Positions 2,044 to 32,272 of a stretch of 41,264 nucleotides of DNA are shown piece by piece (position 1 is the first letter of the stretch; the number at the start of each line of letters is the position of its first letter). Below the pieces are notes generated by a model. That model saw only the letters and a list, made by a program, of their open reading frames with translations. It searched no databases and had not been told where the DNA came from. Origin of the DNA: a virus. Location: IMG/VR virus record IMGVR_UViG_3300042309_000692, positions 1-41,264 of that record; one strand, given 5' to 3'. A program made the translations under genes and the position numbers.

Positions 2044-2094
2044 TAAAAACAAACTACTACTCACTCCCGTAGCGAGCAGCGAGGCGAAGCCTCG
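2044..2094 (-). terminator. Terminator after the structural (late) block
   Basis: Just past the stop codon of the giant gene, the minus strand has two successive hairpins. CGAGGC-TTC-GCCTCG covers plus 2080-2094. CTCGCT-ACGGG-AGTGAG covers plus 2060-2076. The second is followed, after a 6-base TAGTAG step, by the T-rich run TTTGTTTTTA. This is a reasonable intrinsic terminator ending the transcript of about 30 kb. Confidence 0.6.
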
Positions 2095-2101
2095 ATGCGA
2101 A

Positions 2102-5100
2102 CTAGGGAATTCTTGGGACCGTCCGTCGTGCTGCCTGTTCGCGAATGCGCTTGCGAATTTCATCTGGCGAGTAGCGCATGCGCAGACGATCGACGGCTTC
2201 TTGCACGGTGCGCTCATTGGCCTTCTTCTCTTCTGGAATCTGCTGCGCAACGAACCGATACAACTGGTACACGGGCACGCCGCGCAACTGGCCCAGCGCC
2301 AGCAATGCAGGCACGGCGTTGTAGTACCAGTCACGATCAGCCTGCATCTCACGCGCTGCCTGTTCGATCGGACGTACAACGATCGCCTGTCCCATCGCAC
2401 GGCGATTGACGATCGATTGCAGGGCAGTCGAGAATCCGAGCCCAACGTATCCGAACGTGGAGCCGATCAATTCGGCTGCAACCGATGCCGGGACAGACTT
2501 CACGGCTTCAGCGAATGCCTTGTCTTCCTCGTCGTCAGGCTCGTCTGCTCCGCCGAACAAGGCCGCGATGGTCTTGGCCATGTATGCAACCGTCGCGACC
2601 GACGCCACGCCGATGATCGTGCTGCTTGCGGTGTTGCCTGAAATGGCGAGAGTCGTTCCAATCCTTCGCTCGCCGGACAACCATGCCCGGCGGATCTGGT
2701 TGCGCGCCTTGAGCGGATCGCTGCTGAACACGAACAGCATGCGCCACGTTGCGCCGGACCCACGCACTCGATTGACCGCAGCGAATGCAGTCTCATCGAA
2801 TTCATCGCTGGCATTCTGGGTCAGCCGGAAGTCGCGCTCGGCCCGCTTGACTGCCTGCTCAAATGCATCGGTGCCAGTCAGGCCCTCGTCCTTCGCTTCT
2901 GCAAGGCGAGCCTCGACGGCGACCGACATGATGTGCTCATCCATCAGCCGCAGCATGTCAATGAGCGCGGTGAGCGTGAGGTTTGCGTTGTCGGTCGCAT
3001 CACCCAGCGCATTCAAACTATCGGTGATGTTCTTCGCAATGGCCGCATGCCCAGCGGATGCGAACGCACGCGCCATTCCCTTGGCTGCGGTCATCACCTT
3101 GACTCGATCGCCTGCCGACAACGTGCCGGACACGATGCCTCGCATCTGCATCTGGTGCCGTCGGGTGAAGTAGCCACTGGCAGAATGAATCTCGTCAACG
3201 CGAGCAGCCCATGCGCTGGGCGAGCGCAAACGGATGGCAGCACGCGACAATCCCTCGACCCAGTAGTTCCCGGGGATCTCGCTGCCAAGACGAATCGTTC
3301 CACCGACCACGACCTTCGCTGCCGTGCGCGGTGACAACGACAGAACCGCGCCCGTGACGTTGTTGGTCATCCGGTCAATGGCGTTCGTGGATGCACGGGC
3401 GGTCGCGCCGACGCCGTTGCTGAAGATCGCGAGGATCGCCTCCGCCGTGTTGCGTCCCATCTGCCGATCGATTGCAGCCACGATGTCGGGATCGGTGAGC
3501 ACGGTCGATGCATCGCGATAGGGCTGCGCCATGTGAATCATGTCCAGCGCAACATGCAGGTGCCGCTCCCACGTCTGGAATGCATCGCGATAGATCAGCG
3601 GCTGGCGTCCACCTTCACGGGCATTGGTGAACCCAACGCTGGTCAGCGCACTGCGAACCAACGACCCATGCTGGTTCAGCACGGACTTTGACTCGCCTTG
3701 GAATTCGTCCATGTTCCGGACGCGAGGCCAGTAGTTCGTGATCACAGGGGGCTGGTCGCCCTCGACAAGGAACACGGCTTCCATTGCACGGTCACGGATC
3801 TGCACCTCAAGCACGTCCTTCATCGCATCGATCAGGCCGCGCTGTCCCGCAGTCAGCCCAGCACGAATCGCCCGGATCTCCGCGTCCGTCGGGAATACAG
3901 TGAGGGTTGTCTCGGCACCCGCAAACTGCAAGCCCTGCTTTGCAGCATCCGGTGCCGTCGGTGGAATGAACAACTCCAGCGTCTCGTCATCCATTGCCGC
4001 GATGGACATGGCCAAACCAACTGGAATTGTCCGCGTCCGACCTTCCAGCACCACGTCCATGGTCTCTGCGATCGACGTTCCGTTGAGACCGTTGCGAAGT
4101 GCGTAGTCTTCGATGCCAGCGTAGCCCGCCGCACGAAGTGCAGTGCCGAGCGAATTGAGGATGCGCGCATGCTCAAGCCCAGCCTCGCCCTTCGCATCCT
4201 GTGCGCCGACGAGCATCTCGTTGATGACTCCGCCCATCGTGCCCTCGACCTCAAGCATCAGGGTGTAGATGTCCGAGTTGGCAATGGAAATGCGGCGCGC
4301 CAGCGACTGGCGAGGCGGAAGGTCCGCACGATCCCGCATCGGCAGCGTCTGCCGACCAATCATGGCGGTTGCAAGGCGGGTCTTCAGGTCGTTGTATCTG
4401 GCGACGCGCTGCTGCTGCCCGGCCACGAACGACGCCCGGTCCTGTTCGTACAGCAGCAACGCAGCCTGCACGTCATTTGCCGAATCCAAGACCTGCGCGT
4501 AGATGTTTACAGCGTTGACCACTGCCGAACCCATGCCCGGCACGGTAGCCACCGTTGCATAGATGCGACGGCGATTGGCCTGCCGGAGATTGGCGTCCGC
4601 CTTCGTCAGCAAACGCTCGATCGCCTGCCGCACGTCCCACCGCATTCCCCGCTTGTTCATGCGCTTGCGCAGCGCAGAGATCACCCGCAGTTGCTGGCGA
4701 ACTTCCTCATTGACGGCCAGTTTGGTTGCCTCGACGGCAATTCGATTGGCCTTTGCAATCGTCGTTGCGTTGGCGATTCGCGTGGCAAGCGGGCCGCGAA
4801 GATTGCGCGGAAGCATCATGGCCGCGTCCATGGCAATCCGCCGCGCTGCACGCTGCACTGCCAGCACGTTGCGTGACTTCTGGAGCATGGTCTTGATCGC
4901 GAAAATCTGGCGCTGAAGCGTGTCCTCACGCTGCTGCATCTTCTTCAGGATCTGCTGCCGACCACGCATCATTCCCTGCACTTGCCCAGCACGAAGACCC
5001 ATCTGGTGCGCAAAGTCGATTGCCCGAGCAGACGCCTTGGCATCAACCTTGATCCTGTGGGTCGCGGCGCGCAACGCAGACTCGGCCTGCGCAACGCGTG

Positions 5101-8100
5101 CTTCAAGCACCGCGACGCGTTCACGGAAAGGCTTGGCCGCGTTGCGTTCCTTCTGCATTCCAAACACCTGCCCGGCAACCAAGCCCTCGTTTCGTCCGAT
5201 GGCATACGCCCAGTTGGCAATGCGATCGACACGATCCTCCGCTTCTGCCAGTGCCTCAATTGCTTCCCGCGTCTCGGACTTGCGCTCACGCATCTCCTCG
5301 CGCAGGCGAACTACGCGAGCACGCGCCTTCTCCAGTTTCTTCGCAGCCACGCTTGCGGTTTCCGCTGCTGCAATCTTCTCGGCATCATTGATTGCCTTGA
5401 CTCGCTCAAGGCGGGTCTTCAACCTCTGCGCCTGCCCTTCCTTACGCGCCGCAATCAATTCCGCGAACGACAACCTGCGCTGCAAGACCCGCACTTCGCG
5501 CATTGCGTTTGTACGCTGCGCAGCAGTCGTGTTCTCAAGATCCCGCATCGTGCGCTGCATGTCGGAAATCTGTGACCGCAATGCGTCTCGCTCGGCGTCT
5601 GAAGCGTCGGGATCTCGCGCCATGCTTTCTGTTGCGCTTGGCCCAGCACCAACCGGGGTGGCAGTTCCGAACACCTGTTCAACGACCGACGTGCCCGGGA
5701 TCTTCACTAGTTTGGCGTAGTTGCCATATGCGGACGAACTTGGGCGTTCTTCATTCCGCATTGAAGCAATGAAGCCATCGTGCGCATTGATGAGGTATCC
5801 AATCAATCGAGCATCCGTATCACCAAGCACCCTTGAAAGCAACGGGTCTGGATTGGTATTTCTAGACACACGCATATATGCATCAACAAACCGTGGCAAC
5901 AGCGCAACATTGACTTCGCCGGACTGTTCGCGCTCGATCATTGCGGTGCGCAGCGCAGCAACACCAGCAGCGTATGCGTCCTGATTGGTCCGAAAATCAA
6001 GTGCTTCGTCAGGGATCAATTCGCGAATGCTGGATGGTGCAACTCGTCCGTCGCTTACGAGGGCGCGAATGCTTTCAAACGTCATCCTCTGCCACGTCGC
6101 AAACGTGTTCGTGGAATTTCGGAGTGCATCGAGCCGCTTCCCGGCATGCTCATAGATGCGCTCAAGCGGAATTTCCATCTTCCGAAGTGGTCTAAACAGG
6201 ATGTTCGCCAGTTCATTGGTGCCAGTCAGTCCAGACACGCCAATAAGCCAAGCGGCAACCGCACGAATGTGTTCCCGAAGATCACCGGGAACGTTGACAC
6301 GCGTTTCTTCCGGCTTGTCATACTCATCCGCAATAGCCTTGAAGAACGTGAGAACATCAGAAATGATGTCCTCATTCGTAGGCATGCTGAAATAATCAGA
6401 GTTGTATTCAACGAGCGTTCGCAGTTGATCAAACCACCATGGTCCCGATATCGCTGGCTTGGCACCACCTTGTGCTCGGTAACTTCCAGTTCCGCCAAGA
6501 TCGACATACAGCACGTTTCCAGTGTCTGGGTCAACAAGCGTGTTGTCGCCATCCATGCCAATCACATCCCAATTGCGTGACAGGGCATGCAGCACAATGT
6601 GTTCCTGCAAGTCGGCATATGCCTGTGATGCCTCAAACTCGCGCTGCCGCATCGCGTTCCGGAACTGCCCGATCGTTTGATACCCCTCGGCGTACCGAGT
6701 GATCAAAACCCGGTTGAGATCCGGTGTTCCAACCCGGACATCCATTCCATAGTCAGGAACAGGCAGTCCCAAGAACCGATACGCGTTGAAGTATTGCAGT
6801 TCGTTCCGACCGAAGTTCGCGTTGCCAAGATCGCCCTTTACAACCCATCGTTCACCCGTAGGCGCAGTCTGAAGCGTTGCTCCAGTGGATCCACCAAGTG
6901 GCGAACTACCAGATAGGGCCGCGAGCGGAGGAACATTCCCTGCTCGCATCTCCGCGAAGTCCATTTGCTCCAGCGTTTCACCAGTGAACGGGCTAATAAG
7001 GTTGCGGCGTCCGCTCACCACGATTTCATTGTGAACCCCAGCCTCGTCCTGCACGCCAATAAACTCAACAACGTCATACCCATTGGCAAGCGCGACTTTC
7101 TGCACCTCGTCCGTTGAAATCAGGCCACGAACACGATCTCGCACATCTGGCGGCAACTCCGATTCCGGAAGGTTGTCCCACATTTGCCCCAAGCAATCGA
7201 TCCGCAACGGGTTGTATGCGATGACGTAATACGCGTGAATGTATTTTCCGAAGACCTTGAGGTCGTCGGTGCTCACCGTTGACAGCGACAATCCGCGCAG
7301 CAACTTGTCCGTTTCCGACCGATATGGGGAGAACTTCACTGCGTCGGTTGCGTGATACAGCAATACGGGATTGGTTGGATTCGACGTTCCGATGAATCGG
7401 GCGTTGCCGGATACCACCAGCGCCTTGAGTTCGTCAGACGGTTCGCGTGCGAACGACTCAAGCGTAAACCCGCTTTCAGCGGCCCACCGAAGTTCTGCTT
7501 CGATTGCGGCCTTGGTCTTGCGGACCTCCGCATCCTGCGCCTCTTCGCGGGCAAAGGACTCGGATTGCGGCTCGGCAACAACACCAGCATCTGCACCATC
7601 CGCCACCGTGGCGTCGAGATCATTTTCCGCCAATGCGCTGCGCAACTGCGCCTGCGCCGATGACGTGCCGAGATCCACCGACATCGCCTCGCGCATTGCC
7701 ACTCGGTAGTCCTGCCCGACAGGATCATCTGCCGCGCCGAACATGGCGTACAACTCCTTCTCCACATACCACAGCGCGGCCTGCGCGTCTGCAACCTCAT
7801 ACTGCAAGCCAGTCTCGTTCTTGACAACATCAATCGCTTGCGTCAGAATCGACCGCATCTGCGTCCGAATGTAATTCGACTCTGGAGCCGCAGCCGACGC
7901 CGAAAGCGCCTTGGCATACCGCACAAGCGCAGCCTCAAGCGGGGACTTCTTCCGCAACTTCAGCGAGGTGCCAACCACCACGCGGTTGCGGACATCCTTT
8001 GCGAATTCGACGTCGAAGTTCGTCGCAACCTGATCGAGCAGCGCCGGGTTCTCCAACACGTTTGGCGGGATTCGACGCAATACCTGCTCTGCTTCGGCAA

Positions 8101-11100
8101 ACCCGACGGCATCAGGATTCCCTGCGGCAACGATTGCCCGAGCCTTCGCCAGTTCCTGCGCGACATCCGCAATGGCTGACCGAATGGCTGTGTCGTCTTG
8201 TCTTCGCAGCATGCCAAGCGGACGCATAAAGGTCCGCGTGAACCAGACATCTGCGGTCAGCGTGTCGAATCGCTTGTAGAGATTGTTGAAGAACGAGCCA
8301 ATCTTCGGCCCAAGAACGGATGACATGTACACGATGTCGTCAGCGGCATCGTTGATCAACACCACCTTTCCGTTCTCGGACAACAGGTTCATCTCGCGCA
8401 AGGTCTTGTTGTGCTGGCGCACCTTCGCCTTGGTCAACATGAACTTCTCGACAGCCTTCCATGAGCCGAGCGTCTCACGAAGGACGTTCAACTTGTTCAG
8501 GTTGCCGATCATCGGCCCAACGTGACGGGCATCGAACGACGGAGGAATCACGATGCGATCACGCCCGGCGCTCACCCACGCCTCATACAAGGCCCGGGTC
8601 AGTAGTGCGTTGTTCGACACCCGTTCGCCCTGCGACGTGATAGCCAGCATCAACGCAAAGACACGCCGATCGTCGCTCGTCTTCTTTGCCAACTCCGGGT
8701 ATCGGCGCGACGCTTCCGACCACATCTGGTCAACGAGGCGTCCATACCATTCCAGCGCCGAGGCCGACCCAGCCTTGGTGGCCGCATACTTGAGGTCGTC
8801 AGCAATGGATCGCACCATGATCTGCTCGACCTGCTTCGGAATCGGATTGGCCTGCGTGTATTCGGTGAGCCAGCCCATGATGGACTGGCTGAAGGAATCA
8901 AGCAGCACCTGAAGTTCACCAACCGTGTACTTCCGCGACCCGGCCATCCGATAGGACATGATGCCCTTGTCGGCCAGAATGTCTCCAAACGTGTTTGCCT
9001 TGGCATCGGCAAGCGCGCTAGTTGACTCCGCGAGATCCTCCTGCGCTTGCATCAGCGCCTGCACCAGAGGATCACCAGAAACCCATGAGGACACCTGCTG
9101 GTCAATGTCGCGGATTCGTTCCGTCAATGCAGCGATGCGATCCTTCGCATCGGCGGCGTTGGCAAGGCGGACCAGCCGAGCCTCTGCCGACTGATCCACG
9201 TCATCCTTTGCGTATGCGCCCTTCAGTTTGGAATACTGCCGCAACGACTCGCGCTTCGCAACAATGCGCGCACGTTCATTCGTGATTGCGACAATGGTGC
9301 CGATCTCTGCCGTCATGTACGACGCGGTCTCGGCCAACGACGCGATGTCACGACCCTGATTGAGTCGGACGATCGACGCTTGCGTCTGCGCAAGTTCGGC
9401 AGGCGATGCGTCCTTGCGCCGCAGTTCCGCACGAAGACGCTTGCGCTCCGCTTCGATGGCCTCCTGTGCTTCCGCAACAGCACGCTCGGATGAACGCACG
9501 CGAGCCATCGCGTCGGCAATCACCGGAATTGCAGCCATGCGCTCGGCTTCGGCTGCTTCAGGATCGACCTGCACAGCGGCGGGAAGCCACTGGCTTGCAG
9601 ACAGCAGGCGTCCCTTGCTGTCTGGTGTCAGCGTGTCTAACTCGCGCTTGAGAGCGAGCGTGAGTTTTACGAGAGAGATGCGTCGAGCACTGCCGACGAA
9701 GATGTCAGAATCTGCCGACGGGTTTCTGCGATCCCCCTGATCGTCGCGAGCACCTCCTGCCGCGTCCACTTGCTCCACACGCGGGCTGGGTCTGCCTTCT
9801 CCATCGACTGATACACCAACGACAGCATCGCGTTCGCCTCGTCCTGCCGCAATCCTTTCCAGTCGGCTGGGGTCAGCGGTGAAGCCCGCAAGGCCAGTGC
9901 TACGAATCCGCTCTCGTTCGGATTCAGAGAGGTTGAGTTTTGCGAACCAGACTCCGGGGTAATTCGTGACTCGTCCATTTGCATCTGTCTCCGGTACCCA
10001 GCCTTCTGACTTCCAGTACTTGGAAAGCAGGTCGATGTATTCATCCAGCGTCATGCCGGATGGAGGGGTCAAATACTGCGGATCAAACTGCGCATACCCG
10101 TTGGGCATCGCCTGCTCGTCCGCCACGAATCCGAACATGCGATACGCAGTCGGCAACTTGCCGTTCTGCTCTGCCTGCCCGGGCCGACGCACATCGTAGC
10201 AATCGCACCTCATCTCGGTGTTCGGATACCGAGAGATTGCGTGCAACATCACTGGAGCAATCACGTCGGTGATATCGGTCTCATTGCTGTAAAGACCGAC
10301 AGCCTCGTCGTATCCGCCGATGCGCTTGCCTTCAGAATCCAAAGACTCCACGCGCTTGATCATGTACGCCACGTCAAGCCCGGGAATCCCATAAGGCTCG
10401 TAGGACGTGCGCGTCGTCCCCGTTTCGTTCGTTTCGATTGTCGGATTGGCAATCTGATCGAGCGTGTACTGGGTCAGCGTCTGCGTAGCCTTGTTTCGCT
10501 TGTGGCCTTGCAGGTATTCGCTCGGCGTGAGCGGACGGAAATTCAGCGTCGCCATCGACGCCGCTGCCGCCATGAAACGGCGGGCCATGTCAAGCCGTGC
10601 ACCCTCGCGCATGTTCGGCTGGCCAACCAACGCCTCGCGCAACTTTGCTACTGCTGTGGACTTCTGAATATCGCCCACCTGCGCCTTGCGCGCTGCCGCT
10701 TCGGCCTTCTCGCGCTTGGTCGCAATGACCTTCCCGACTCGTTCCGCCGCCTGCTTGGCAACGAACTTTCTTGCCGTCTCAATATCACGTGCGAAGTTCA
10801 CATCCATGTTGCCAGCCCACAGCAACGTGCGGGCAAGTGGCGACAGTGAGGGATCCTGCACCTTCGGGCCAACGACGTTGGACACCGCCGCCGCCCGGGC
10901 AACGGTTTCAAATACCGCCATCGCCGCCATGGCCTCGCGGCCTAGGAACCCCCGTGCGGCGGCAAATGCCACCGCCGGGCCGAAGATGCCGCCACGGGTA
11001 GCCGCCGCTGCCGCTGCAAAGGCGTTGGCTGCGCCCTCCTGCTCCAGACGGGCCGCGCCCGCCCGGGCGACCCCCGGGGCAAGCGGAGCCTGCTGGACGC

Positions 11101-13231
11101 CCTCCAGCGCCCCCAGAGCGGCCCCAGCCTGCTCCATGGCCGCGAGGTCCATCCGACCCGTAGCAGCCGATTCTGGAGCCCCACGCCCAGCGTATTCGAC
11201 CCCAGCCGCGTAGATCGGGGCAAGCCCCGCCCGCTCCATGAATACCTCGGCCAACTCCGGCTGGAACATCTGAATATCGTGGAAGACCTCCTCAAGCGCG
11301 GAAGCCATGATCCGATCAGGCTTTGCGTCTGCGTTCAGGTACACCACTCCACGGCTCCGCATCGAGTGAAACGCTGGGTTGAACTTGCCGGACGGGCGGA
11401 ACCACACCACCTTCCGCCCCAAAGCCTCGATCTGCTTTTGGACACGCTTGCCAGACTTCGGGGCCGTGGTTTCGGTCATGGTCATTCCAGCCCGGGTGCC
11501 CATGCCACTCAAGACGGTGGCCGGATCTGCCTGCTCCATGACCGCAGGCATCTCGCTGATCTTCTCCGCCACCGCATTGTGGATGGCCGAAGCCATCAGC
11601 CGATCGGTGACAGCCGAGCCGATCGAAGCATCAATGCGTGCGATGTCGTCCTTGATGTCCTGAATCGCCTGCGCGTCCATGGCGTCCATGGCACCAGCAA
11701 GACCAATGTCCAGCCGCTGGCGCTCGTCCAGCATCGACTCGACCTCGGTCTGGATATCAGCCTGCCGCTGCGCAAGATCAGCAAGGAACACGCCTCGCTG
11801 CTGCTGGTCCATCCCGTTCAGGCTGTCCAGCGCACTGGACACGCTGGCAATCTGCGTCTGGTCAAGACCGTCCTGCCAGTTTACCCGACGCTTCAGCGCC
11901 TCGCCATGAATGGTCCGCAATGCGCGTTCATGGTCCGTTTCGGGCCGCATGGCTTCGCGGCGATTCATCATCGCACGGTTGCCAGATACTGCAAGCACAG
12001 ATCCAGTTCCGCCGATTCCACCCGCGATGGTTCCGATGAACGCCCCGTACACACCGTCAGCCAAATCCTTTGACAGCGGTGCTGCCGTGAACGGAGCCAT
12101 CAGCGCAGCGGTGATTCCCTCTTCCGCGCCCTCCTCAAGTCCAGACACGCCAATGATTCCGGACGCACGGCCAAGCCACCCGTTCCTGAACGAGGCAGTC
12201 CCGTTGGAAATTCTGGCAAACGTATCAAGACCCTTCTGGCCAGCCTTGGACTGCAACGCCTTGTTGACAATCGGCGCGCCGCGCTCGATGAACGGACGCA
12301 ATGCCGCCTTGCCAACCTTGGTCTTGAGCCCAACACCCGCAATCTTCGCGAGCGCCTTGCCACCGATTGCAGCGCCACCAGCCTCCACTCCAGCCTCAAT
12401 GACGGCGCGTGCTTCGGCTCGCGTTCTGGATTCCTGAAGCGAGTACTCCGTCAGCGGACGCCCCTCGATTGCGTCATCCGCTCGCTGCTGGTCAACCTCG
12501 TCCATGGCTTCAATAAAGCCGGACGAATATGACGTGAATGGAATCATCGCCGTGCTGATAATGCCTGCCGCAACTGGGACATTTCCCGTGGCCAGCGCAC
12601 CAGCAACGCCAATCATCTGCGGGACATTCTGCCCAACCGCACGCGCTACGTCCGGAATCACGCCCTCCGGGGCACCGCGCATCATGCCTTCCTGCGCGCC
12701 ACGAATGGCAATCAATTCAGACCGCAGATCCTCAACAGTGAGCCCGGACTTCTCTGGCTCGACAGCCATGGACAGTTTGTCTGCAACTGCCTGATTGACA
12801 AGGTTTTGCGTTGCAGGATCTACATCGGAGAACCACGACGCGATGTACTCGATCGGTCGCATGACCGACCGAATGAACTGCCCTCGCATGCCCGGAGTGG
12901 CGATGGTCTGCGCAGCCTGTTCAGCGGTCATCCGCAGCCCACGCTCAATTTCGCGCAGTGGCAGAATCCCACCAGCCCCCGTCATTCCAATTCCACCCTC
13001 TGGCGTAACCAGCAGGTCTTCGTACTGCTTGGCAGCACCTTCCAACAGATCCGCCTCGCCGGGTGCCGTGCCCGGCGTGGCACCGGGCGCTTCCGACAAT
13101 TGCGTCTGAACGATCGAGTCGATCGCGTCCTGAAAGGACATTTGCGGTGCGGACTGCGGACGCATAGGTTCCGCGCCCGGCTGCACGGACATGCGCAGCG
13201 CCTCGTCGATCGCCTTCTGGAAATTGGACAT
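2102..13231 (-). CDS. Giant polyvalent virion/ejection protein (3709 residues)
   Basis: This single uninterrupted gene is 11.1 kb. Visible segments are: hydrophobic Gly-rich stretches (about 194-240 and 390-417); a metallopeptidase-like region (about 584-760) whose HExxH site reads EEVFH (647-651), lacking the first His; an acetyltransferase-like region (about 900-1105, with MRCDCYD and LPTAYRMFGF); coiled coil (about 1223-1420); a conserved helical region (about 1477-1672); an ADP-ribosyltransferase-like domain (about 1950-2085: YHAT with H1960, LSLST, NEIVV with E2069); a protein-kinase-like domain (about 2110-2310: K2132, NWD with D2222, N2230, DLGG with D2244); long coiled coil (about 2515-2890); a region with NYWPRV (about 3163); and a membrane segment (about 3530-3557). 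This layout matches injected polyvalent proteins of phages. It follows the nozzle and ejection genes and is last in its operon. It is probably packaged and ejected with the DNA. The ORF and size are certain; domain calls are by motif only. Confidence 0.8.
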   Translation of the reverse strand: MSNFQKAIDEALRMSVQPGAEPMRPQSAPQMSFQDAIDSIVQTQLSEAPGATPGTAPGEADLLEGAAKQYEDLLVTPEGGIGMTGAGGILPLREIERGLRMTAEQAAQTIATPGMRGQFIRSVMRPIEYIASWFSDVDPATQNLVNQAVADKLSMAVEPEKSGLTVEDLRSELIAIRGAQEGMMRGAPEGVIPDVARAVGQNVPQMIGVAGALATGNVPVAAGIISTAMIPFTSYSSGFIEAMDEVDQQRADDAIEGRPLTEYSLQESRTRAEARAVIEAGVEAGGAAIGGKALAKIAGVGLKTKVGKAALRPFIERGAPIVNKALQSKAGQKGLDTFARISNGTASFRNGWLGRASGIIGVSGLEEGAEEGITAALMAPFTAAPLSKDLADGVYGAFIGTIAGGIGGTGSVLAVSGNRAMMNRREAMRPETDHERALRTIHGEALKRRVNWQDGLDQTQIASVSSALDSLNGMDQQQRGVFLADLAQRQADIQTEVESMLDERQRLDIGLAGAMDAMDAQAIQDIKDDIARIDASIGSAVTDRLMASAIHNAVAEKISEMPAVMEQADPATVLSGMGTRAGMTMTETTAPKSGKRVQKQIEALGRKVVWFRPSGKFNPAFHSMRSRGVVYLNADAKPDRIMASALEEVFHDIQMFQPELAEVFMERAGLAPIYAAGVEYAGRGAPESAATGRMDLAAMEQAGAALGALEGVQQAPLAPGVARAGAARLEQEGAANAFAAAAAATRGGIFGPAVAFAAARGFLGREAMAAMAVFETVARAAAVSNVVGPKVQDPSLSPLARTLLWAGNMDVNFARDIETARKFVAKQAAERVGKVIATKREKAEAAARKAQVGDIQKSTAVAKLREALVGQPNMREGARLDMARRFMAAAASMATLNFRPLTPSEYLQGHKRNKATQTLTQYTLDQIANPTIETNETGTTRTSYEPYGIPGLDVAYMIKRVESLDSEGKRIGGYDEAVGLYSNETDITDVIAPVMLHAISRYPNTEMRCDCYDVRRPGQAEQNGKLPTAYRMFGFVADEQAMPNGYAQFDPQYLTPPSGMTLDEYIDLLSKYWKSEGWVPETDANGRVTNYPGVWFAKLNLSESERERIRSTGLAGFTADPSRLERIAAGRGERDAVVGVSVDGEGRPSPRVEQVDAAGGARDDQGDRRNPSADSDIFVGSARRISLVKLTLALKRELDTLTPDSKGRLLSASQWLPAAVQVDPEAAEAERMAAIPVIADAMARVRSSERAVAEAQEAIEAERKRLRAELRRKDASPAELAQTQASIVRLNQGRDIASLAETASYMTAEIGTIVAITNERARIVAKRESLRQYSKLKGAYAKDDVDQSAEARLVRLANAADAKDRIAALTERIRDIDQQVSSWVSGDPLVQALMQAQEDLAESTSALADAKANTFGDILADKGIMSYRMAGSRKYTVGELQVLLDSFSQSIMGWLTEYTQANPIPKQVEQIMVRSIADDLKYAATKAGSASALEWYGRLVDQMWSEASRRYPELAKKTSDDRRVFALMLAITSQGERVSNNALLTRALYEAWVSAGRDRIVIPPSFDARHVGPMIGNLNKLNVLRETLGSWKAVEKFMLTKAKVRQHNKTLREMNLLSENGKVVLINDAADDIVYMSSVLGPKIGSFFNNLYKRFDTLTADVWFTRTFMRPLGMLRRQDDTAIRSAIADVAQELAKARAIVAAGNPDAVGFAEAEQVLRRIPPNVLENPALLDQVATNFDVEFAKDVRNRVVVGTSLKLRKKSPLEAALVRYAKALSASAAAPESNYIRTQMRSILTQAIDVVKNETGLQYEVADAQAALWYVEKELYAMFGAADDPVGQDYRVAMREAMSVDLGTSSAQAQLRSALAENDLDATVADGADAGVVAEPQSESFAREEAQDAEVRKTKAAIEAELRWAAESGFTLESFAREPSDELKALVVSGNARFIGTSNPTNPVLLYHATDAVKFSPYRSETDKLLRGLSLSTVSTDDLKVFGKYIHAYYVIAYNPLRIDCLGQMWDNLPESELPPDVRDRVRGLISTDEVQKVALANGYDVVEFIGVQDEAGVHNEIVVSGRRNLISPFTGETLEQMDFAEMRAGNVPPLAALSGSSPLGGSTGATLQTAPTGERWVVKGDLGNANFGRNELQYFNAYRFLGLPVPDYGMDVRVGTPDLNRVLITRYAEGYQTIGQFRNAMRQREFEASQAYADLQEHIVLHALSRNWDVIGMDGDNTLVDPDTGNVLYVDLGGTGSYRAQGGAKPAISGPWWFDQLRTLVEYNSDYFSMPTNEDIISDVLTFFKAIADEYDKPEETRVNVPGDLREHIRAVAAWLIGVSGLTGTNELANILFRPLRKMEIPLERIYEHAGKRLDALRNSTNTFATWQRMTFESIRALVSDGRVAPSSIRELIPDEALDFRTNQDAYAAGVAALRTAMIEREQSGEVNVALLPRFVDAYMRVSRNTNPDPLLSRVLGDTDARLIGYLINAHDGFIASMRNEERPSSSAYGNYAKLVKIPGTSVVEQVFGTATPVGAGPSATESMARDPDASDAERDALRSQISDMQRTMRDLENTTAAQRTNAMREVRVLQRRLSFAELIAARKEGQAQRLKTRLERVKAINDAEKIAAAETASVAAKKLEKARARVVRLREEMRERKSETREAIEALAEAEDRVDRIANWAYAIGRNEGLVAGQVFGMQKERNAAKPFRERVAVLEARVAQAESALRAATHRIKVDAKASARAIDFAHQMGLRAGQVQGMMRGRQQILKKMQQREDTLQRQIFAIKTMLQKSRNVLAVQRAARRIAMDAAMMLPRNLRGPLATRIANATTIAKANRIAVEATKLAVNEEVRQQLRVISALRKRMNKRGMRWDVRQAIERLLTKADANLRQANRRRIYATVATVPGMGSAVVNAVNIYAQVLDSANDVQAALLLYEQDRASFVAGQQQRVARYNDLKTRLATAMIGRQTLPMRDRADLPPRQSLARRISIANSDIYTLMLEVEGTMGGVINEMLVGAQDAKGEAGLEHARILNSLGTALRAAGYAGIEDYALRNGLNGTSIAETMDVVLEGRTRTIPVGLAMSIAAMDDETLELFIPPTAPDAAKQGLQFAGAETTLTVFPTDAEIRAIRAGLTAGQRGLIDAMKDVLEVQIRDRAMEAVFLVEGDQPPVITNYWPRVRNMDEFQGESKSVLNQHGSLVRSALTSVGFTNAREGGRQPLIYRDAFQTWERHLHVALDMIHMAQPYRDASTVLTDPDIVAAIDRQMGRNTAEAILAIFSNGVGATARASTNAIDRMTNNVTGAVLSLSPRTAAKVVVGGTIRLGSEIPGNYWVEGLSRAAIRLRSPSAWAARVDEIHSASGYFTRRHQMQMRGIVSGTLSAGDRVKVMTAAKGMARAFASAGHAAIAKNITDSLNALGDATDNANLTLTALIDMLRLMDEHIMSVAVEARLAEAKDEGLTGTDAFEQAVKRAERDFRLTQNASDEFDETAFAAVNRVRGSGATWRMLFVFSSDPLKARNQIRRAWLSGERRIGTTLAISGNTASSTIIGVASVATVAYMAKTIAALFGGADEPDDEEDKAFAEAVKSVPASVAAELIGSTFGYVGLGFSTALQSIVNRRAMGQAIVVRPIEQAAREMQADRDWYYNAVPALLALGQLRGVPVYQLYRFVAQQIPEEKKANERTVQEAVDRLRMRYSPDEIRKRIREQAARRTVPRIP

Positions 13232-13239
13232 TTATCTTC

Positions 13240-14778
13240 CTACTTACGGTACTTGACGAGCAAGGCCACGAACTTCGCGTAGCGCGCACGACCCTCACGT
13301 GAGGTGTCTGCCGCCAGTTGCTTCGATGCCTCGATGATGTCGCTGACCGGATCACCTGAATCCGGCATGTCGTACCCGAGAGCCGACACTTCATCGCGAA
13401 GTTCGGCATACTGCTTCCTATCCTCTTCGGTAATGATCCCGGTAATGGCTTCGGTCTGTTGAGCAGAAGCCTCGCTGCGACGAGCGCCAGCCAGAGCACC
13501 CGCCGCACGGGCACGCTCCGACGCCAACTTCGCCTGCTGCATTTCCGTAGCCTGTGCCTGCTCTTCGCGGCCAGCCTGAATACGAGCCATGCCACCAAGC
13601 GTCCGCTGCCGCGTCGGATCCGTGGCTGGTGAAGCCTCAAGCGCCGGGGCATTGGCATACTGCATGCCCATTTCCTGCGTGGGGCCATAAATGGGACGCA
13701 TTGCCCCACCACCAGCCGATGCCATCACAGCAGGTCCAAGACGCTGGGCAATGTACTTGGCCGCAATGTCGCGGTCTGCCGGATTCCATGGCCGACCCCA
13801 TCCGACCTGCCGCGTCATCTCCTCCGCCCGCTGTGCCAGCGTGGGAATACGGAGTTCCGGCGGCATGGCCTCGATTGCATCGCGACCAAGGTCCGAGATG
13901 GCCATATCAGCCATGCTGATCAACGCGTTGCTGTTTCCGGTCGTCATGTAGTACGACGGGAATGCAGCCGCACCCACCACCGAACCGTCCGGGGGTGCAT
14001 ACACGCCAAACTGCTGAAGGTTCAGCAACTTGATCCGCAAGTGCTGGTCCATCTGCGCCTTGTAGTAGTCGGGGATGGAGTCATCGGCCATGACGCCTTC
14101 CAACTGACTGGTGTACTGGTCAGTCTTGTACTTGACGAACGACTCCGCCTGCATGCGCGCTACCTCAAGATTGGTGGCATTCACACGCTGGGTCATGGCT
14201 TGGATGACCGAATCATCCTTGGCCTGCACACGTGCATACATCTCCTGAACTGCCGTGTACGCGCCCTGCGGATCACGCTCAAGTGCGCTCTCCGCAAACA
14301 TGTTGAAGCCCGGGGCATAGGCTTCCAGTTCCTGCGCCATCTGGCGGATGGGCGCGCGCAGCCTGTCGGCGTCGCGCTTCTTCCGCATCTGCATGGCCAT
14401 GCCGATACGAGCCTGCGAACGCTGCTGGAGTGCCGCAAGCCACTGCTGTTCCGAGAGACGGATCGCCTGCCGCTGTCCGGCCTTGTCGGTGAACAGCACC
14501 GCAGGCGTGCCATCTGGCATCGTGCCAAAGTCAAGAGCCTCAAGACCCGTGTAGTACCCGTTCTCCAGACCCTGCTCAACAGCACCAAAAGTACCGTATG
14601 GAGCAATCTCACGCGAACCACGCGGGTCGAGTGCTGACTGCTTCAGCAGTTCGTCGTCCATCAGCGGATCCGGCTGCTCGGCCTGTTGTGGAGCCGCAGC
14701 AAAGCCCTCGTTCGGACGAAGCGTCAGCGGAGGCTGGTTGGCGAAGTTCGTAGGCTGTGGATTGGGGAACGCGCTCAT
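13240..14778 (-). CDS. Putative internal virion (ejection) protein, 512 residues
   Basis: No family is recognised. The protein has a Pro/Gln-rich N-terminus, a mostly helical Ala/Gln/Met-rich body (for example residues 120-260) and a strongly helical C-terminus rich in Ala, Glu and Arg. There is no signal peptide and no catalytic motif. It sits immediately upstream of the giant gene (8-base gap) and overlaps the preceding gene by one base (TAATG), so the genes are translationally coupled. Position between the nozzle and the giant ejected protein, plus composition, suggest an internal core or ejection protein of the kind carried by T7-like and P22-like phages. Function is inferred from context only. 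Confidence 0.6.
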   Translation of the reverse strand: MSAFPNPQPTNFANQPPLTLRPNEGFAAAPQQAEQPDPLMDDELLKQSALDPRGSREIAPYGTFGAVEQGLENGYYTGLEALDFGTMPDGTPAVLFTDKAGQRQAIRLSEQQWLAALQQRSQARIGMAMQMRKKRDADRLRAPIRQMAQELEAYAPGFNMFAESALERDPQGAYTAVQEMYARVQAKDDSVIQAMTQRVNATNLEVARMQAESFVKYKTDQYTSQLEGVMADDSIPDYYKAQMDQHLRIKLLNLQQFGVYAPPDGSVVGAAAFPSYYMTTGNSNALISMADMAISDLGRDAIEAMPPELRIPTLAQRAEEMTRQVGWGRPWNPADRDIAAKYIAQRLGPAVMASAGGGAMRPIYGPTQEMGMQYANAPALEASPATDPTRQRTLGGMARIQAGREEQAQATEMQQAKLASERARAAGALAGARRSEASAQQTEAITGIITEEDRKQYAELRDEVSALGYDMPDSGDPVSDIIEASKQLAADTSREGRARYAKFVALLVKYRK

Positions 14779-15260
14779 TACTTCACCAGTCCAAGAGTGC
14801 GAGCGGCTGCGGTCTGCCCGTAACCGATCTTGATTCCGAACGGCTCCTCTGCCTGCTTCGCCGTGGCCCGTGGCGCAATGCCAGCAACCATGCCCCCGAT
14901 GTCGGGCATGACCGATGCGCGCTCCGCCTGCGAACGGTAGATATCTTCCTCTGCCTGCGACTTGGCCATCATGTCCGCGACGCTTCGCTGGGTGGCCTGT
15001 TCGGCCCGGAACGCCATGACAGGAGCATCGAGTTTGGCCTGAAGACCCTGCGTCGATCCAAGAATGGCCCCAGCAAACGAACTGTATTCGTTGCCGGGCT
15101 GATATGCGGCGAGACCAGTTGCCAGCCCACGCAAGTAGTTGCCAGCAAACTGCGCTGTTCCAGACAGGAACGAATCCCAGCCAGACTTCGACTTGGCTTC
15201 AACCTGTGGAAGCGTCTGAAATGCCGCACGGGCTCCAAGACCCGCCTGAAACATGCTCAT
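14778..15260 (-). CDS. Putative small virion/ejection protein, 160 residues
   Basis: The family is not recognised. The N-terminal half is Gly/Ala/Phe-rich and weakly hydrophobic (SGTAQFAGNYLRGLATG). The middle is a helical Gln/Glu/Arg stretch (about 80-115) and the C-terminus is compact. It overlaps the genes on either side by 4 bases (upstream, ATGA) and 1 base (downstream, TAATG). Together with its neighbours it forms a set of three small genes between the nozzle and the giant protein, where short-tailed phages keep the proteins that build the DNA-ejection conduit. Role inferred from context. Confidence 0.6.
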   Translation of the reverse strand: MSMFQAGLGARAAFQTLPQVEAKSKSGWDSFLSGTAQFAGNYLRGLATGLAAYQPGNEYSSFAGAILGSTQGLQAKLDAPVMAFRAEQATQRSVADMMAKSQAEEDIYRSQAERASVMPDIGGMVAGIAPRATAKQAEEPFGIKIGYGQTAAARTLGLVK

Positions 15261-16069
15261 TGCTGACCTCCTCCAAAGGCTCGGCTAAACGGCGAAAGCG
15301 CCTGTCCAAATCCACCACCGATTCCTTCAGCAAGCGCACCAATTCCTGCCCCGAGCAGCGCACCGCCAAAGGCATTGCCAGCAGCCATGTCCTGTTGCGC
15401 CTTGTTGATTTCCGCCGCATATCGCGCATCGACAGGGCGCGTCATAAAGCCAAGGCTTGCTTGAAGTTGCGCTGCTCGCGCAGCCTGTGCAGCCGTAGTG
15501 TATTGCTGGTACTGGCCGCTCTGATACTGCGCCGATCCAAGGCCAGCGGCAAACAGACTCTGTGCACCCTGCTGCTCCATCTGTGCAAGCGCAGATGCCT
15601 GTGCCATCTGGGCCGATGCAAGTGTCTGTGCGTACTGCTCCTGCACGGCTCCCGCCTGAAGCGCGCCCTGCGCCGCCACGGCATTGACCGCCCCCTGCCC
15701 AAACGTGGTGTTGCTCAAGCCCGTAAGCATGCCGCTGACCTGCTGCCGCGCCACCGCCAAGTCCGTCTGCTGCTTGAGCAGCGCCAACGTAGCGTCGCGC
15801 CCGCTTGCCAGTGTCTGATATGCCTCTTGACCAGCAGCACGAAATGCCTCACGCGACTGGGCCATCAGGTCGCTGTACTTGCTGACAGCCTCGTTGTATG
15901 CCTGTGAGTACACCTGTGCGTTGTTGGAACGCTCAACTAGAAACTGATCAATGATCTTGCCGTATTCACGATCCGAATAGGTTCGTGCAGCGGCATATCC
16001 CTTTTCCATTTTTCGGATGGCCGCGCCGTAATCGGACGCGCCGCCGAATAGATTGCTGAAAAGGCCCAT
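15257..16069 (-). CDS. Putative internal virion protein, 270 residues
   Basis: The protein starts MGLFSNLFGGASDYG, typical of short phage internal proteins. It continues as a long helical Ala/Gln/Tyr-rich region (about 20-230) and ends in a Gly-rich hydrophobic tail (GALLGAGIGALAEGIGGGFG, about 236-255) that could insert in a membrane. Size, composition and position resemble T7 gp14-like ejection proteins, which form the outer-membrane part of the ejection channel. That equivalence is an inference, since no sequence motif proves it. It overlaps its neighbours by 4 bases downstream and 1 base upstream. Confidence 0.6.
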   Translation of the reverse strand: MGLFSNLFGGASDYGAAIRKMEKGYAAARTYSDREYGKIIDQFLVERSNNAQVYSQAYNEAVSKYSDLMAQSREAFRAAGQEAYQTLASGRDATLALLKQQTDLAVARQQVSGMLTGLSNTTFGQGAVNAVAAQGALQAGAVQEQYAQTLASAQMAQASALAQMEQQGAQSLFAAGLGSAQYQSGQYQQYTTAAQAARAAQLQASLGFMTRPVDARYAAEINKAQQDMAAGNAFGGALLGAGIGALAEGIGGGFGQALSPFSRAFGGGQQ

Positions 16070-18258: not shown

Positions 18259-19553
18259 TATTCAAGAGTCCAATACTGAATTACCACCGCTCCACCGACG
18301 CCGCCCGAGGCAGAACCGGGGCCTTCGGGTGCCCCGGCTTGTCCGGCTTTCAATGATCCCGTTGCACTCCACGGAACCGCCGGAAGACTTTGATTTGCAT
18401 TCCATCCCTCTCTGTCTACGGGAGGCTCAAGAAGATGCGAACCCCAAATATTTGCAAATTGTCGAGTGCTCCCAGCAGGAGCAGAACCAACAGTAGACCC
18501 TGCACGGTTAGGAACAGTGCCGCCTACCGTTGCTCCACCATTTGCCGTTAGTCCAAATGCACTACTAGCCGTAGCAGCAGCCGGATTGGTTGTATTACTT
18601 CCCGCACTACCAGCACCTACGGTGATTGTGAATGTTGTTCCCGGAACTACAGTGAAGTGCCCCGTAATGCAACCGCCGGGCTGTCCGTAAACAGTGACAG
18701 GCGGATTTACAATTAGGCTAGTATAACCACCACCCTGACCACCCCCAACAACCGTTACGATCACTCCAAGACACCGTGCAGGAGCCGTCCACGTTCCTGA
18801 CGCTGCAAATGCCACAATGTTTGTTTTTACTCCGATGCCTGTCGCAAGCCGATCGAGAGCAACAGTATTGTTAGCAATCTTGGCATTGACAATTGCGCCG
18901 TCGCGAATGTGATTCGTTGTGACCGCCCGATTGGCGTCCGTTGATGGGTCGTCCCGCAATTTGCCTGCGGTCACTGCGTCATCAGCGATCTTTGCAGTCG
19001 TGACCGCGACATCGCGAATGTGATCCGTCGTGACCGCACGATTTCCATCAGTCACTGCGTCATCGCGCAATTTGTCTGCGGTTACCGCGTCGTCAGCAAG
19101 TTGTGATGTCCCAATAGATCCATCATGCTGCGACAACGCAACCCATGTCGTATAGGCTGTCCCATCCCATCCGCGTGAGAACACGCGCTGGGTCTTGGTC
19201 GAAAACAACACTTGGGCCACGCTGCCAGTGGCAATGCGGGTCACCAGCAGGATCCCCGGGGCGTCGGACGCAGGAGTCCAGCCAGATGGGACATTCGTCA
19301 CTACCGACGCAGCAATCTCAAATCGCCCCTGCTGCACGTATGCAGCGGCATTCAAGTCATTGCCAGCGCCGGAAATCTGCGCGTATGCAGCGCGTGCATA
19401 TGGAAGCGAATTCCACGCCAGCGTCCCGTCGCCAATCTTGAAGTTGCCAGTATCGGTTTCAAGCCCGATCTCACCAGCCAGCAACACTGGGTTGTTGGAT
19501 GGGTTTGCCCAGTCAGCGGCAAGGCCACGGCGGATCTGCAACTTGATTGCCAT
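18258..19553 (-). CDS. Tail fibre / receptor-binding protein
   Basis: This 431-residue protein has three parts. Residues 1-55 (LQIRRG...AGEIGLETDTGNFKIGDG) match the virion-attachment domain seen at the start of many phage fibres and of the Mtd tropism determinant. Residues about 145-225 are tandem fibre repeats of the D-A-V-T-x-x-K-L/I type, present as two 37-residue units. Residues about 255-431 are a glycine-rich tip ending GGAVVIQYWTLE, like Gly-rich adhesin tips with polyglycine loops. It should bind the host surface from the nozzle. The tip is likely the host-range determinant. No chaperone or cleavage domain is visible. Confidence 0.85.
   Translation of the reverse strand: MAIKLQIRRGLAADWANPSNNPVLLAGEIGLETDTGNFKIGDGTLAWNSLPYARAAYAQISGAGNDLNAAAYVQQGRFEIAASVVTNVPSGWTPASDAPGILLVTRIATGSVAQVLFSTKTQRVFSRGWDGTAYTTWVALSQHDGSIGTSQLADDAVTADKLRDDAVTDGNRAVTTDHIRDVAVTTAKIADDAVTAGKLRDDPSTDANRAVTTNHIRDGAIVNAKIANNTVALDRLATGIGVKTNIVAFAASGTWTAPARCLGVIVTVVGGGQGGGYTSLIVNPPVTVYGQPGGCITGHFTVVPGTTFTITVGAGSAGSNTTNPAAATASSAFGLTANGGATVGGTVPNRAGSTVGSAPAGSTRQFANIWGSHLLEPPVDREGWNANQSLPAVPWSATGSLKAGQAGAPEGPGSASGGVGGAVVIQYWTLE
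18902..19123 (-). repeat. Tandem 111-bp repeat in the fibre shaft
   Basis: Two imperfect 111-bp units (18902-19012 and from 19013) are aligned by the shared string CGCGAATGTGAT. They encode the 37-residue fibre-shaft unit (DHIRD...AKIADDAVTAGKLRDD). Unit number in such genes changes by recombination and alters shaft length. Confidence 0.7.
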
Positions 19554-20170: not shown

Positions 20171-20354
20171 TCTTCGCCTCGATCTTGGCAAGCCTGTCCG
20201 ACAACGACTCCTGTTGCGTCACAACCCGCATGAGCAGACGGTCATGGTGAATGAATGCTGCCAAGACCCCACTGCTGACGGCCACAACAATGCCGACAAT
20301 TGCAATCCAGTCGCGGGCAGACAGCCGCACGATGTTGTCGCGCTCGATGGTCAT
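20151..20354 (-). CDS. 67-residue membrane protein with coiled coil (holin-like)
   Basis: The ATG (20352-20354) overlaps the stop of the upstream gene (TAATG), which fixes the start. It has a charged N-terminus (MTIERDNIVRLSARD), one membrane segment (about residues 17-37, WIAIVGIVVAVSSGVLAAF), then a heptad-patterned helix (QQESLSDRLAKIEAKIEV). One membrane span followed by a coiled coil is common in small phage holin or hemolysin XhlA-like proteins. With the next two genes it forms a three-gene membrane cluster, the only visible candidate for a lysis region. The longer ORF starting at 20477 lies inside the upstream gene and is not needed. Confidence 0.65.
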   Translation of the reverse strand: MTIERDNIVRLSARDWIAIVGIVVAVSSGVLAAFIHHDRLLMRVVTQQESLSDRLAKIEAKIEVSRN

Positions 20355-23841: not shown

Positions 23842-24318
23842 TCAGGCGAGCGCGAGGCTTCCATCAAGCAGAATCTGGACGGACGTGACCGCACCACCGC
23901 TGCTGGTGAGCACGACGCCGATCTTTGCCGCCGGGCTTGAGTTGGTGGCCGTGGCGGCGGTGCCGCTCGGACCAACCGCCTGACCAGCGGTGTACGTCGC
24001 GGACGCACACTTGACGTTCGTCACGCCGCAGACCATGATGTCCGCCTGCTGCCCAGCAGCAGCAGCCGTCTGCGCCACTCCATAGATGCCTCCGGCACTG
24101 TCACCAGTGAACGGACCAATGGCAACATTGGCAAACTTGGAGTTGGTCGTCGCGTTGAACGCAGCATCGCCCTGACCGGGAATGGACGATGCCTGCGACA
24201 GATCGAACCGAACGAGATCACCGACCGAGACGCTGCTGACGCACCGTGCCTTGACGATGACCGGGCGCGGCTGGATGCCGATGGTGCCCTGCGAAAGAGC
24301 CGAAAGAAGAACTGACAT
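23842..24318 (-). CDS. Putative capsid decoration / stabilisation protein
   Basis: This 158-residue beta-rich protein, Ala/Gly/Thr/Ser-rich, has no enzyme motif and is encoded directly after the major capsid gene, as decoration or head-stabilising proteins usually are. VGDLVRFDLSQASSIPGQG (about 32-50) and VTSVQILLDGSLALA (C-terminus) are distinctive. The same full-length domain is fused to the N-terminus of the SGNH-like protein at 20354-23065. It is flanked on both sides by strong RNA hairpins, which fits a product needed in large amounts. The decoration role is inferred from position and composition. Confidence 0.65.
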   Translation of the reverse strand: MSVLLSALSQGTIGIQPRPVIVKARCVSSVSVGDLVRFDLSQASSIPGQGDAAFNATTNSKFANVAIGPFTGDSAGGIYGVAQTAAAAGQQADIMVCGVTNVKCASATYTAGQAVGPSGTAATATNSSPAAKIGVVLTSSGGAVTSVQILLDGSLALA

Positions 24319-29405: not shown

Positions 29406-29692
29406 CAGTCTGCTTCCTCGATGATCGGCAGGAACGACCAAATGGGGGTTCCCTCGCCCACATATGCACACACGATGTTGTGCTCCAAGTGCTCGACTGC
29501 GTCGTCGTGGTCCATGCCCTTGTCGTTGACCAAGACCTGAACCACCCGGTGCGTGTCGTAGACAACCCGCCACGCGCCCGTCTTCATGTCCCGCGTCAGG
29601 CCAATGACGGCATCGTCGAGACCGTCCGCAAAGACGATCTCCTCCTCGTTCTCGTCGGCCCAATGCCTGACCCTGTCAGCGTTTGCAATCAT
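29405..29692 (-). CDS. Conserved acidic phage protein of unknown function, 95 residues
   Basis: This acidic, compact protein has FADGLDDAVIGLTRDMKTG, VVYDTHRVVQVLV and the C-terminal VCAYVGEGTPIWSFLP. This arrangement (GxDDAxIG, then VYDxxxxxxxL, then VGExTPI) is familiar from many phages and some bacteria, where it is annotated only as hypothetical. It overlaps terL by 4 bases (ATGA). No enzymatic motif is evident. Confidence 0.75.
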   Translation of the reverse strand: MIANADRVRHWADENEEEIVFADGLDDAVIGLTRDMKTGAWRVVYDTHRVVQVLVNDKGMDHDDAVEHLEHNIVCAYVGEGTPIWSFLPIIEEAD

Positions 29693-31797: not shown

Positions 31798-32272
31798 CGC
31801 TCGGCTCCGGCAGGGCTGGCGGACTTTGCTGCTCGGCGCGAAGTCTCGCAGCCGCAGCGAACCTCTCCAGCATCTCCAGCGCCCTGCTGGCGTTGCCGTC
31901 CTCGACGCGCAGCCCGCCGGACACCTCGACCTTCTGCACACCGTCCCGGTACCGCCCGGGCTTCAAGCCCCGCAGCCGGAGCGCCAGCGCGTTCAACTGC
32001 ACCTGCGAGCCCGGCGAAGCGCCGGACGCAATGCCGTCCAGCGTCTCCTCATGCCGCTCGGCCACCACGCGCTCGGCGGTCGCTCGCGCCTGCGCGAAGG
32101 CCGGGTCCGCCTTCTCCCAGCCCACGGGAGTGCTTTCCGCCACGCCAGCAGCAGCGCAAGCGCCCCGCCAGCCTGCGCCATCAGCCCACGCTCGCAGCCA
32201 CGCTGCCTTGCGATCTCCAGACTTCGTGAAATTCTTCACGAACTCTTCCAGCCAGTCCGGTTCCTCGCTCAT
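31790..32272 (-). CDS. terS: Terminase small subunit
   Basis: This 160-residue protein sits directly upstream of, and overlaps, terL. The helix-turn-helix-like N-terminus (AWLRAWADGAGWRGACAAAG, then ESTPVGW) is followed by a long oligomerisation helix (FAQARATAERVVAERHEETL) and the segment NALALRLRGLKPGRYRD, a pattern common in small terminases (AL..RLRGLKP..YRD). It recognises the packaging site and recruits TerL. The start region contains the inverted repeat at 32223-32242. Confidence 0.8.
   Translation of the reverse strand: MSEEPDWLEEFVKNFTKSGDRKAAWLRAWADGAGWRGACAAAGVAESTPVGWEKADPAFAQARATAERVVAERHEETLDGIASGASPGSQVQLNALALRLRGLKPGRYRDGVQKVEVSGGLRVEDGNASRALEMLERFAAAARLRAEQQSPPALPEPSDG
32223..32242. 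promoter_or_regulatory. Inverted repeat at the terS start (operator-like)
   Basis: TTCGTGAA (32223-32230) and TTCACGAA (32235-32242) are perfect arms separated by 4 bases, within codons 11-17 of terS. A dyad of this size just inside the first gene of a block is a typical regulator site. It may pair functionally with the CGAAATTTCG palindrome at 32348-32357. Confidence 0.4.

What the first reader, a model, noticed from the sequence alone, without database searches (positions are those of the whole stretch)
2102..13231. 3709-residue polyvalent virion protein filling 27% of the genome
One gene carries, in order, an inactivated peptidase-like region, an acetyltransferase-like region, ART-like and kinase-like domains, long coiled coils and membrane segments. 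Such chains in small phages are candidates for multi-effector payloads injected with the DNA to shut down host functions before phage transcription. The combination in a 41-kb genome looks unusual and may be novel.
Basis: partly seen in the sequence, partly recalled or inferred. Interest (0 to 1): 0.85.

Follow-up and report, generated by a model that had tools for sequence, protein, structure and literature searches.

The report
Giant phage protein with swappable effector slot
A quarter of this small virus of bacteria is one giant gene whose two ends are constant while its middle, carrying enzyme-like parts probably injected into the host cell, is exchanged between related viruses; the protein class is known, but this family and its fixed-ends, changing-middle build appear undescribed.

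Summary
The 3709-residue gene is real (minus strand, 2102-13231, 27% of a genome with a 127-bp terminal repeat) and is the last virion-side gene in a strictly conserved order. The proposed domains largely hold up: a zincin-like region with EExxH (three relatives keep HExxH), a GNAT-like fold, an ART-PolyVal-like region, and a HipA/CtkA-type kinase with its catalytic residues in place. It belongs with the 'polyvalent proteins' of Iyer et al. 2017, which are predicted to be injected with DNA, so the idea is not new; 39-kb GenBank podoviruses carry 2800-3200-residue analogues. What stands out is the architecture. All relatives share an N part (1-823) and a C part (2541-3709), neither matched in Pfam, PDB or GenBank phages, around one slot holding 220 to about 1900 residues of differing cargo. 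Between two phages 97-100% identical over most of the protein, only the ART-to-2540 stretch is replaced (ART dS 0.95 versus 0.17 or less elsewhere). Best reading: a virion-packaged carrier with an exchangeable effector slot, whose zincin and probably ART have lost canonical catalytic residues but remain under purifying selection. Packaging and injection are inferred, not shown.

The parts
2102..13231 (-). giant polyvalent protein gene, 3709 aa
10763..13231 (-). constant N part, residues 1-823, shared by all relatives that cover it (39-65% identity)
11012..11434 (-). zincin-like region, residues ~600-740
   Evidence: helix/strand order with pLDDT ~80 over residues ~570-650; intact HExxH in L023, L024, L026
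11276..11293 (-). EEVFHD (647-652), the HExxH site with its first His replaced by Glu
5612..10762 (-). variable cargo slot, residues 824-2540; other relatives hold 220 to ~1900 residues of differing cargo here
9941..10552 (-). GNAT-like domain, residues ~894-1097
   Evidence: the 50 best VIA rows are GNAT-fold or related acyl/aminoacyl-transferases, Z 6.2-8.4, ~100 aligned; model pLDDT only ~50-75
9368..9535 (-). coiled-coil-like stretch, residues 1233-1288
   Evidence: heptad score above 300 shuffles
7652..8944 (-). DUF7178-related all-helical domain, residues 1430-1860; invariant K1643 and D1661
   Evidence: 553 related stretches in viral contigs
6947..7426 (-). ART-PolyVal-like domain, residues 1936-2095; His1960 kept, Tyr and Asp positions not conserved
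6362..6946 (-). HipA/CtkA-type kinase domain, residues 2096-2290; K2132, D2222, D2229, N2230, D2244
5612..7414 (-). ART-to-2540 stretch replaced between this phage and near-identical L002/L003
2105..5611 (-). constant C part, residues 2541-3709 (46-72% identity)
5168..5335 (-). coiled-coil-like stretch, residues 2633-2688
12557..12613 (-). marginal membrane-like segment, residues 207-225
2561..2617 (-). marginal membrane-like segment, residues 3539-3557
13240..14778 (-). 512-aa gene, always directly upstream in relatives; possible companion internal protein
14778..15260 (-). 160-aa gene in the conserved block
15257..16069 (-). 270-aa gene in the conserved block
2056..2080 (-). terminator-like hairpin just after the gene (count of such sites in the region is not above chance)

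Best explanation
The gene encodes a phage polyvalent protein that is packaged in the particle of a small podovirus-like phage and enters the host with the DNA. Its constant ends (1-823, including a zincin-like module without the canonical HExxH, and 2541-3709) form the carrier that docks, packages and threads the chain. The slot between them (824-2540) carries exchangeable host-directed modules: here a GNAT-like domain, a DUF7178-related domain, an ART-like domain and a kinase. The kinase is the module most likely to be catalytically active and would phosphorylate host proteins early in infection; zincin and ART keep their fold under purifying selection but may now act as docking or binding modules. 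Shown here: domains, constant ends, slot exchange, synteny, lost residues. Inferred: packaging, injection, targets, roles of the ends.
For: Constant ends and slot: over a dozen distinct relatives, breaks near residues 823 and 2540. Slot contents in relatives: ART-PolyVal up to E 1.3e-30, DUF7178 1.6e-13, weak GNAT. Window ART region versus relatives' ART-PolyVal set: hhalign P 9.5e-6, 83%. Kinase: relatives hit HipA_2/APH/HipA_C to 1.5e-5; model best match CtkA Z 11.2 over 210 residues, all 50 rows kinases. The model of 1420-2340 best matches BFVD proteins named 'ART-PolyVal-like' and 'large polyvalent protein associated', E to 1.7e-15. GNAT. Order fibre-729-270-160-512-giant-ExoVIII-ERF kept wherever the contig reaches. 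Local replacement between near-identical phages. Phage polyvalent proteins typically lie near virion genes (PMC5512222).
Against: No virion proteomics for any relative. Constant ends have no recognised fold, so the carrier role is by position only. The window's own protein passes no Pfam or PHROG threshold; ART and GNAT rest on relatives, profile comparison or low-confidence models. Losses of zincin and ART catalytic residues fit a structural role for parts of the chain as well as an effector role.
Confidence: 0.7

Rival explanations
1. It is mainly a structural ejection or internal-core protein (like podovirus internal virion proteins) that builds a conduit; the enzyme-like domains are decayed leftovers without effector function.
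For: Zincin lacks a zinc ligand in 11 of 14 aligned N parts and ART lacks two triad residues; it sits directly after other probable internal-protein genes; Arg/Lys-rich C part.
Against: Kinase residues kept; slot content swapped while the ends stay; several relatives carry ART-PolyVal with its motifs.
Confidence: 0.2
2. An N4-like virion RNA polymerase: a giant injected chain that starts phage transcription.
For: Similar length (the N4-like phage DEV polymerase is 3398 aa, PMC10925440) and shared presence of a zincin-like domain in such chains (PMC5512222).
Against: No RNA polymerase family among Pfam or PHROG matches for the protein or its relatives; the modelled stretches gave GNAT, DUF7178-like, ART and kinase.
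Confidence: 0.03
3. Made late and not packaged: an intracellular polyprotein acting in assembly or superinfection exclusion.
For: Late-gene position alone does not prove packaging; no proteomics is available.
Against: Phage polyvalent proteins near virion genes are held to be virion-borne (P1 DdrB and N4 vRNAP cited in PMC5512222); tight coupling to the 160/270/512-aa genes.
Confidence: 0.07

Closest known systems
Polyvalent proteins of phages and conjugative elements (Iyer et al. 2017, PMC5512222)
   Same: One chain with disparate enzyme-like domains (zincin-like, GNAT, ART, kinase) encoded by the virion genes.
   Different: Constant N and C parts match no Pfam or PDB entry and nothing in the GenBank phage set; a single central slot; zincin and ART without canonical catalytic residues.
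Giant proteins of 39-kb podoviruses: Limnohabitans phage DC33 (3125 aa), ctEw122 (2792 aa), ctQRb9 (3209 aa)
   Same: Similar genome size, virion-gene neighbourhood, ART-PolyVal, and the 1463-1841 domain at 26-28% identity.
   Different: Ends unrelated by BLAST; LPD22 at the N end; no kinase match found.
PTXU04 gp25, 2198-aa putative polyvalent protein (PMC11879866)
   Same: Large putative polyvalent protein of a phage; knock-down sharply reduced plaquing.
   Different: Not compared by sequence here.
N4-like virion RNA polymerase
   Same: Giant injected chain of a short-tailed phage with a zincin-like region said to be needed for encapsidation (PMC5512222).
   Different: No polymerase match here.
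CtkA (Helicobacter pylori) and HipA-like kinases
   Same: Kinase fold, Z 11.2 to CtkA.
   Different: Here one module of a giant chain; sequence identity about 15%.

Membership tests
Polyvalent proteins (Iyer et al. 2017) | two or more domains of disparate activity in one chain | tested here: met
   GNAT-like, ART-like and kinase folds plus zincin-like region
Polyvalent proteins (Iyer et al. 2017) | phage versions lie next to virion genes | tested here: met
Polyvalent proteins (Iyer et al. 2017) | packaged in the virion and injected | not testable with these tools
   needs virion proteomics and a translocation assay
ART-PolyVal (PF18760) | profile similarity | tested here: inconclusive
ART-PolyVal (PF18760) | His-Tyr-Asp active-site triad (PMC5512222) | tested here: not met
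   His1960 aligned; Tyr and Asp positions hold Ser and Gly in the window (alignment is distant)
MPTase-PolyVal / zincin | HExxH zinc motif | tested here: not met
   EEVFH in the window and EExxH in 10 relatives; HELFH/HEVFH in L023, L024, L026
MPTase-PolyVal / zincin | match to PF18818 | tested here: inconclusive
   no Pfam match for the window or in the records holding L025 and L029
HipA/APH-like kinase | kinase fold with Lys, Glu, catalytic Asp/Asn and metal-binding Asp | tested here: met
GNAT | GNAT fold | tested here: met
   the 50 best VIA rows are GNAT-fold or related acyl/aminoacyl-transferases, Z to 8.4, on a low-confidence model
GNAT | R/Q-x-x-G-x-G/A acetyl-CoA loop | tested here: not met
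   by eye, no such motif in the conserved EAVGLYSNExDITD stretch
HhH-GPD DNA glycosylase (idea for 1430-1860) | profile similarity to EndoIII/MutY | tested here: inconclusive
   hhalign no better than shuffled columns; a K-x17-D pair like the Nth K120/D138 pair (numbers from memory) is the only hint
N4-like virion RNA polymerase | single-subunit RNA polymerase domain | tested here: inconclusive
   no Pfam or PHROG match; C part not modelled

The most novel reading that the evidence does not exclude
A virion-borne carrier system resembling polymorphic toxins: two conserved ends, with a decayed protease kept as a packaging or docking module, deliver whatever effector module is recombined into the central slot, so that related phages exchange host-takeover payloads much as they exchange tail fibres.
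Probability: 0.35. Interest if true: 0.7.

Novelty: new variant of a known kind. Interest (0 to 1): 0.5.

Why it matters
If right, the constant ends would mark the delivery part of a large injected phage protein, so that 'what carries it' and 'what it carries' can be tested separately, and comparing slots across relatives would give a list of phage effectors under exchange. It also flags a very common, uncharacterised phage domain (DUF7178-related) as part of these chains, and shows catalytic residues lost in domains that stay under purifying selection.

Tried and rejected
DNA glycosylase (HhH-GPD) identity for 1430-1860: profile comparison with 35 EndoIII/MutY proteins scored like shuffled columns; not claimed. 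Foldseek and VIA lists for model 2 were filled by kinases, so they do not test the other domains of that model. Deep mixed alignments A11 and A13 misplaced fragments and were not used for folding. Profiles of both constant ends found nothing convincing in PDB. The C part found no relative in genome contigs or GenBank phages, and the DUF7178-related domain none in 299 bacterial genomes of one phylum (no positive control). tblastn of residues 1-2744 in GenBank phages found only the 1463-1841 and kinase-adjacent pieces. PF18818 rang in one of 37 relative records only.

Full report
OBSERVATION. The frame at 2102-13231 lies on the minus strand: 3709 aa, ATG start, 8 bases after the 512-aa gene upstream. 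It covers 27.0% of the record; the longest stop-free run in 50 shuffles is 378 codons. The record is an IMG/VR virus contig with a 127-bp direct terminal repeat, so probably a complete genome.

SETTING. On the same strand, in order: terminase large subunit, portal-like, major capsid, cement, SU10-type adaptor, 903-aa protein, tail fibre, then 729, 270, 160 and 512-aa genes, then the giant gene. Across the ends of the terminally repeated record come ExoVIII-type exonuclease and ERF. In relatives the order fibre-729-270-160-512-giant-(299-aa exonuclease)-ExoVIII-ERF holds in every contig as far as it reaches. This is a podovirus-like layout; the 160/270/512-aa proteins and the giant are where short-tailed phages keep internal or ejection proteins (inference from established knowledge).

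CONSTANT ENDS, VARIABLE MIDDLE. The window protein has no Pfam or PHROG match at E up to 1. Scans of viral contigs gave relatives. In all that span it, residues 1 to ~823 and ~2540 to 3709 align at roughly 39-72% identity, while the stretch between is shared as a whole only with L005/L006/L007/L019/L025. Other relatives carry about 220-1300 residues of other sequence there, apart from the DUF7178-related domain in L012, L029 and L031; the L005/L019 and L025 relatives carry extra insertions before the C part. Pfam on these middles: ART-PolyVal in L014 (6.7e-18), L021 (1.3e-30), L027 (1.1e-14), L029 (4.4e-13), weaker in L009, L024, L026, L031; DUF7178 in L031 (1.6e-13); weak GNAT in L025; nothing convincing in L013, L023, L028. 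Trees of the N and C parts recover the same main groups.

EXCHANGE BETWEEN CLOSE RELATIVES. L002/L003 are 97-100% identical in protein to the window over most of the chain, with dS 0.17 or less. The ART region is 78% identical with dS 0.95, the kinase 88% (dS 0.37), residues 2291-2540 87% (dS 0.27); a 233-nt identical run ends at about residue 1939. dN/dS stays at 0.34 or below in all parts, so replacement by recombination, with purifying selection, fits better than fast change in place. The tail region is the other diverged part between these phages.

DOMAINS. (1) Zincin-like, ~600-740: the model of 570-1185 is poor overall (mean pLDDT 49), but the stretch ~570-650 reaches about 80 with a helix-strand-helix-three-strand-helix order. 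The motif reads EEVFHD; L023 reads HELFHD and L024/L026 HEVFHD, so this is a zincin motif whose first ligand is Glu in most relatives. On the N-part tree HExxH is one group; on the C-part tree it needs two changes, so the direction is not settled. dN/dS here is 0.025: still constrained. (2) GNAT-like, ~896-1097: the 50 best VIA rows are GNAT-fold or related acyl/aminoacyl-transferases, Z 6.2-8.4; Foldseek alone was not significant. The usual acetyl-CoA loop motif is not seen in the conserved stretch. (3) DUF7178-related, 1430-1860: 553 related viral stretches, many inside 2300-3700-residue frames; 8 of 39 aligned members match DUF7178; modelled with pLDDT mostly 75-98 as almost all-helical. 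A DNA glycosylase idea failed the profile test. (4) ART-like, 1936-2095: hhalign P 9.5e-6, 83% to relatives' ART-PolyVal set; His1960 aligns, Tyr and Asp do not. (5) Kinase, 2096-2290: 131 related viral stretches; relatives match HipA_2, APH and HipA_C; best fold match CtkA, Z 11.2 over 210 residues, with all rows kinases; K2132, D2222, D2229, N2230 and D2244 lie at positions conserved across the family.

WHAT IT IS. The features match polyvalent proteins (PMC5512222): disparate protein-modifying domains in one chain by the virion genes. That paper already describes ART, kinase, GNAT and zincin domains, and notes that kinase-containing loci of Verrucomicrobium resemble polymorphic-toxin cassettes. 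The best BFVD matches to the 1420-2340 model are proteins named ART-PolyVal-like and large-polyvalent-protein-associated. Three 39-kb podoviruses in GenBank have 2792-3209-residue proteins with ART-PolyVal and the DUF7178-related domain, two of them annotated as crystallin-motif proteins. A giant multi-effector chain in a small phage is therefore not exceptional. A 2198-aa putative polyvalent protein of phage PTXU04 is needed for plaquing (PMC11879866).

MECHANISM. Most likely: made late, packaged through its constant ends, ejected with or before the DNA; in the cell the slot modules act on host proteins, the kinase being the likeliest active enzyme; the zincin-like module, no longer canonical, serves packaging, docking or binding. 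For N4 the zincin-containing region is said to be needed for encapsidation without the chain being cleaved (PMC5512222), a precedent for that role. Packaging, ejection, targets and timing are inferred.

NOVELTY. New variant of a known kind. Not seen in Pfam, PDB or GenBank phages: the two constant ends. Notable: the single slot with documented exchange.

Noticed in passing
window 22863-22963 and 24125-24225: A 101-bp repeat (76% identity) shared by the start of the 903-aa gene and the cement-protein gene, suggesting a domain duplicated between a head-decoration and a tail protein; also seen as a cement match within the 903-aa-gene region of L009.
   Followed up: no
window 18873-19094: Tandem 111-bp repeat (75% identity) inside the tail-fibre gene that also carries an Mtd_N domain.
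   Followed up: no
L005 10198-17892, minus strand: A 2565-codon frame open on the strand opposite the giant gene; probably a codon-usage effect, but unusually long.
   Followed up: no
window 29689-31941: The terminase large subunit frame starts about 200 residues before the profile match, in a region of high G+C (to 0.70) and strong GC skew.
   Followed up: no
window 20354-23065: The 903-aa gene is largely replaced between this phage and L002, like the ART-kinase stretch.
   Followed up: partly
PQ492659.1 (Limnohabitans phage DC33), locus L015: The GenBank record is filed under Inoviridae although it is a 39-kb tailed phage with capsid and tail genes.
   Followed up: no
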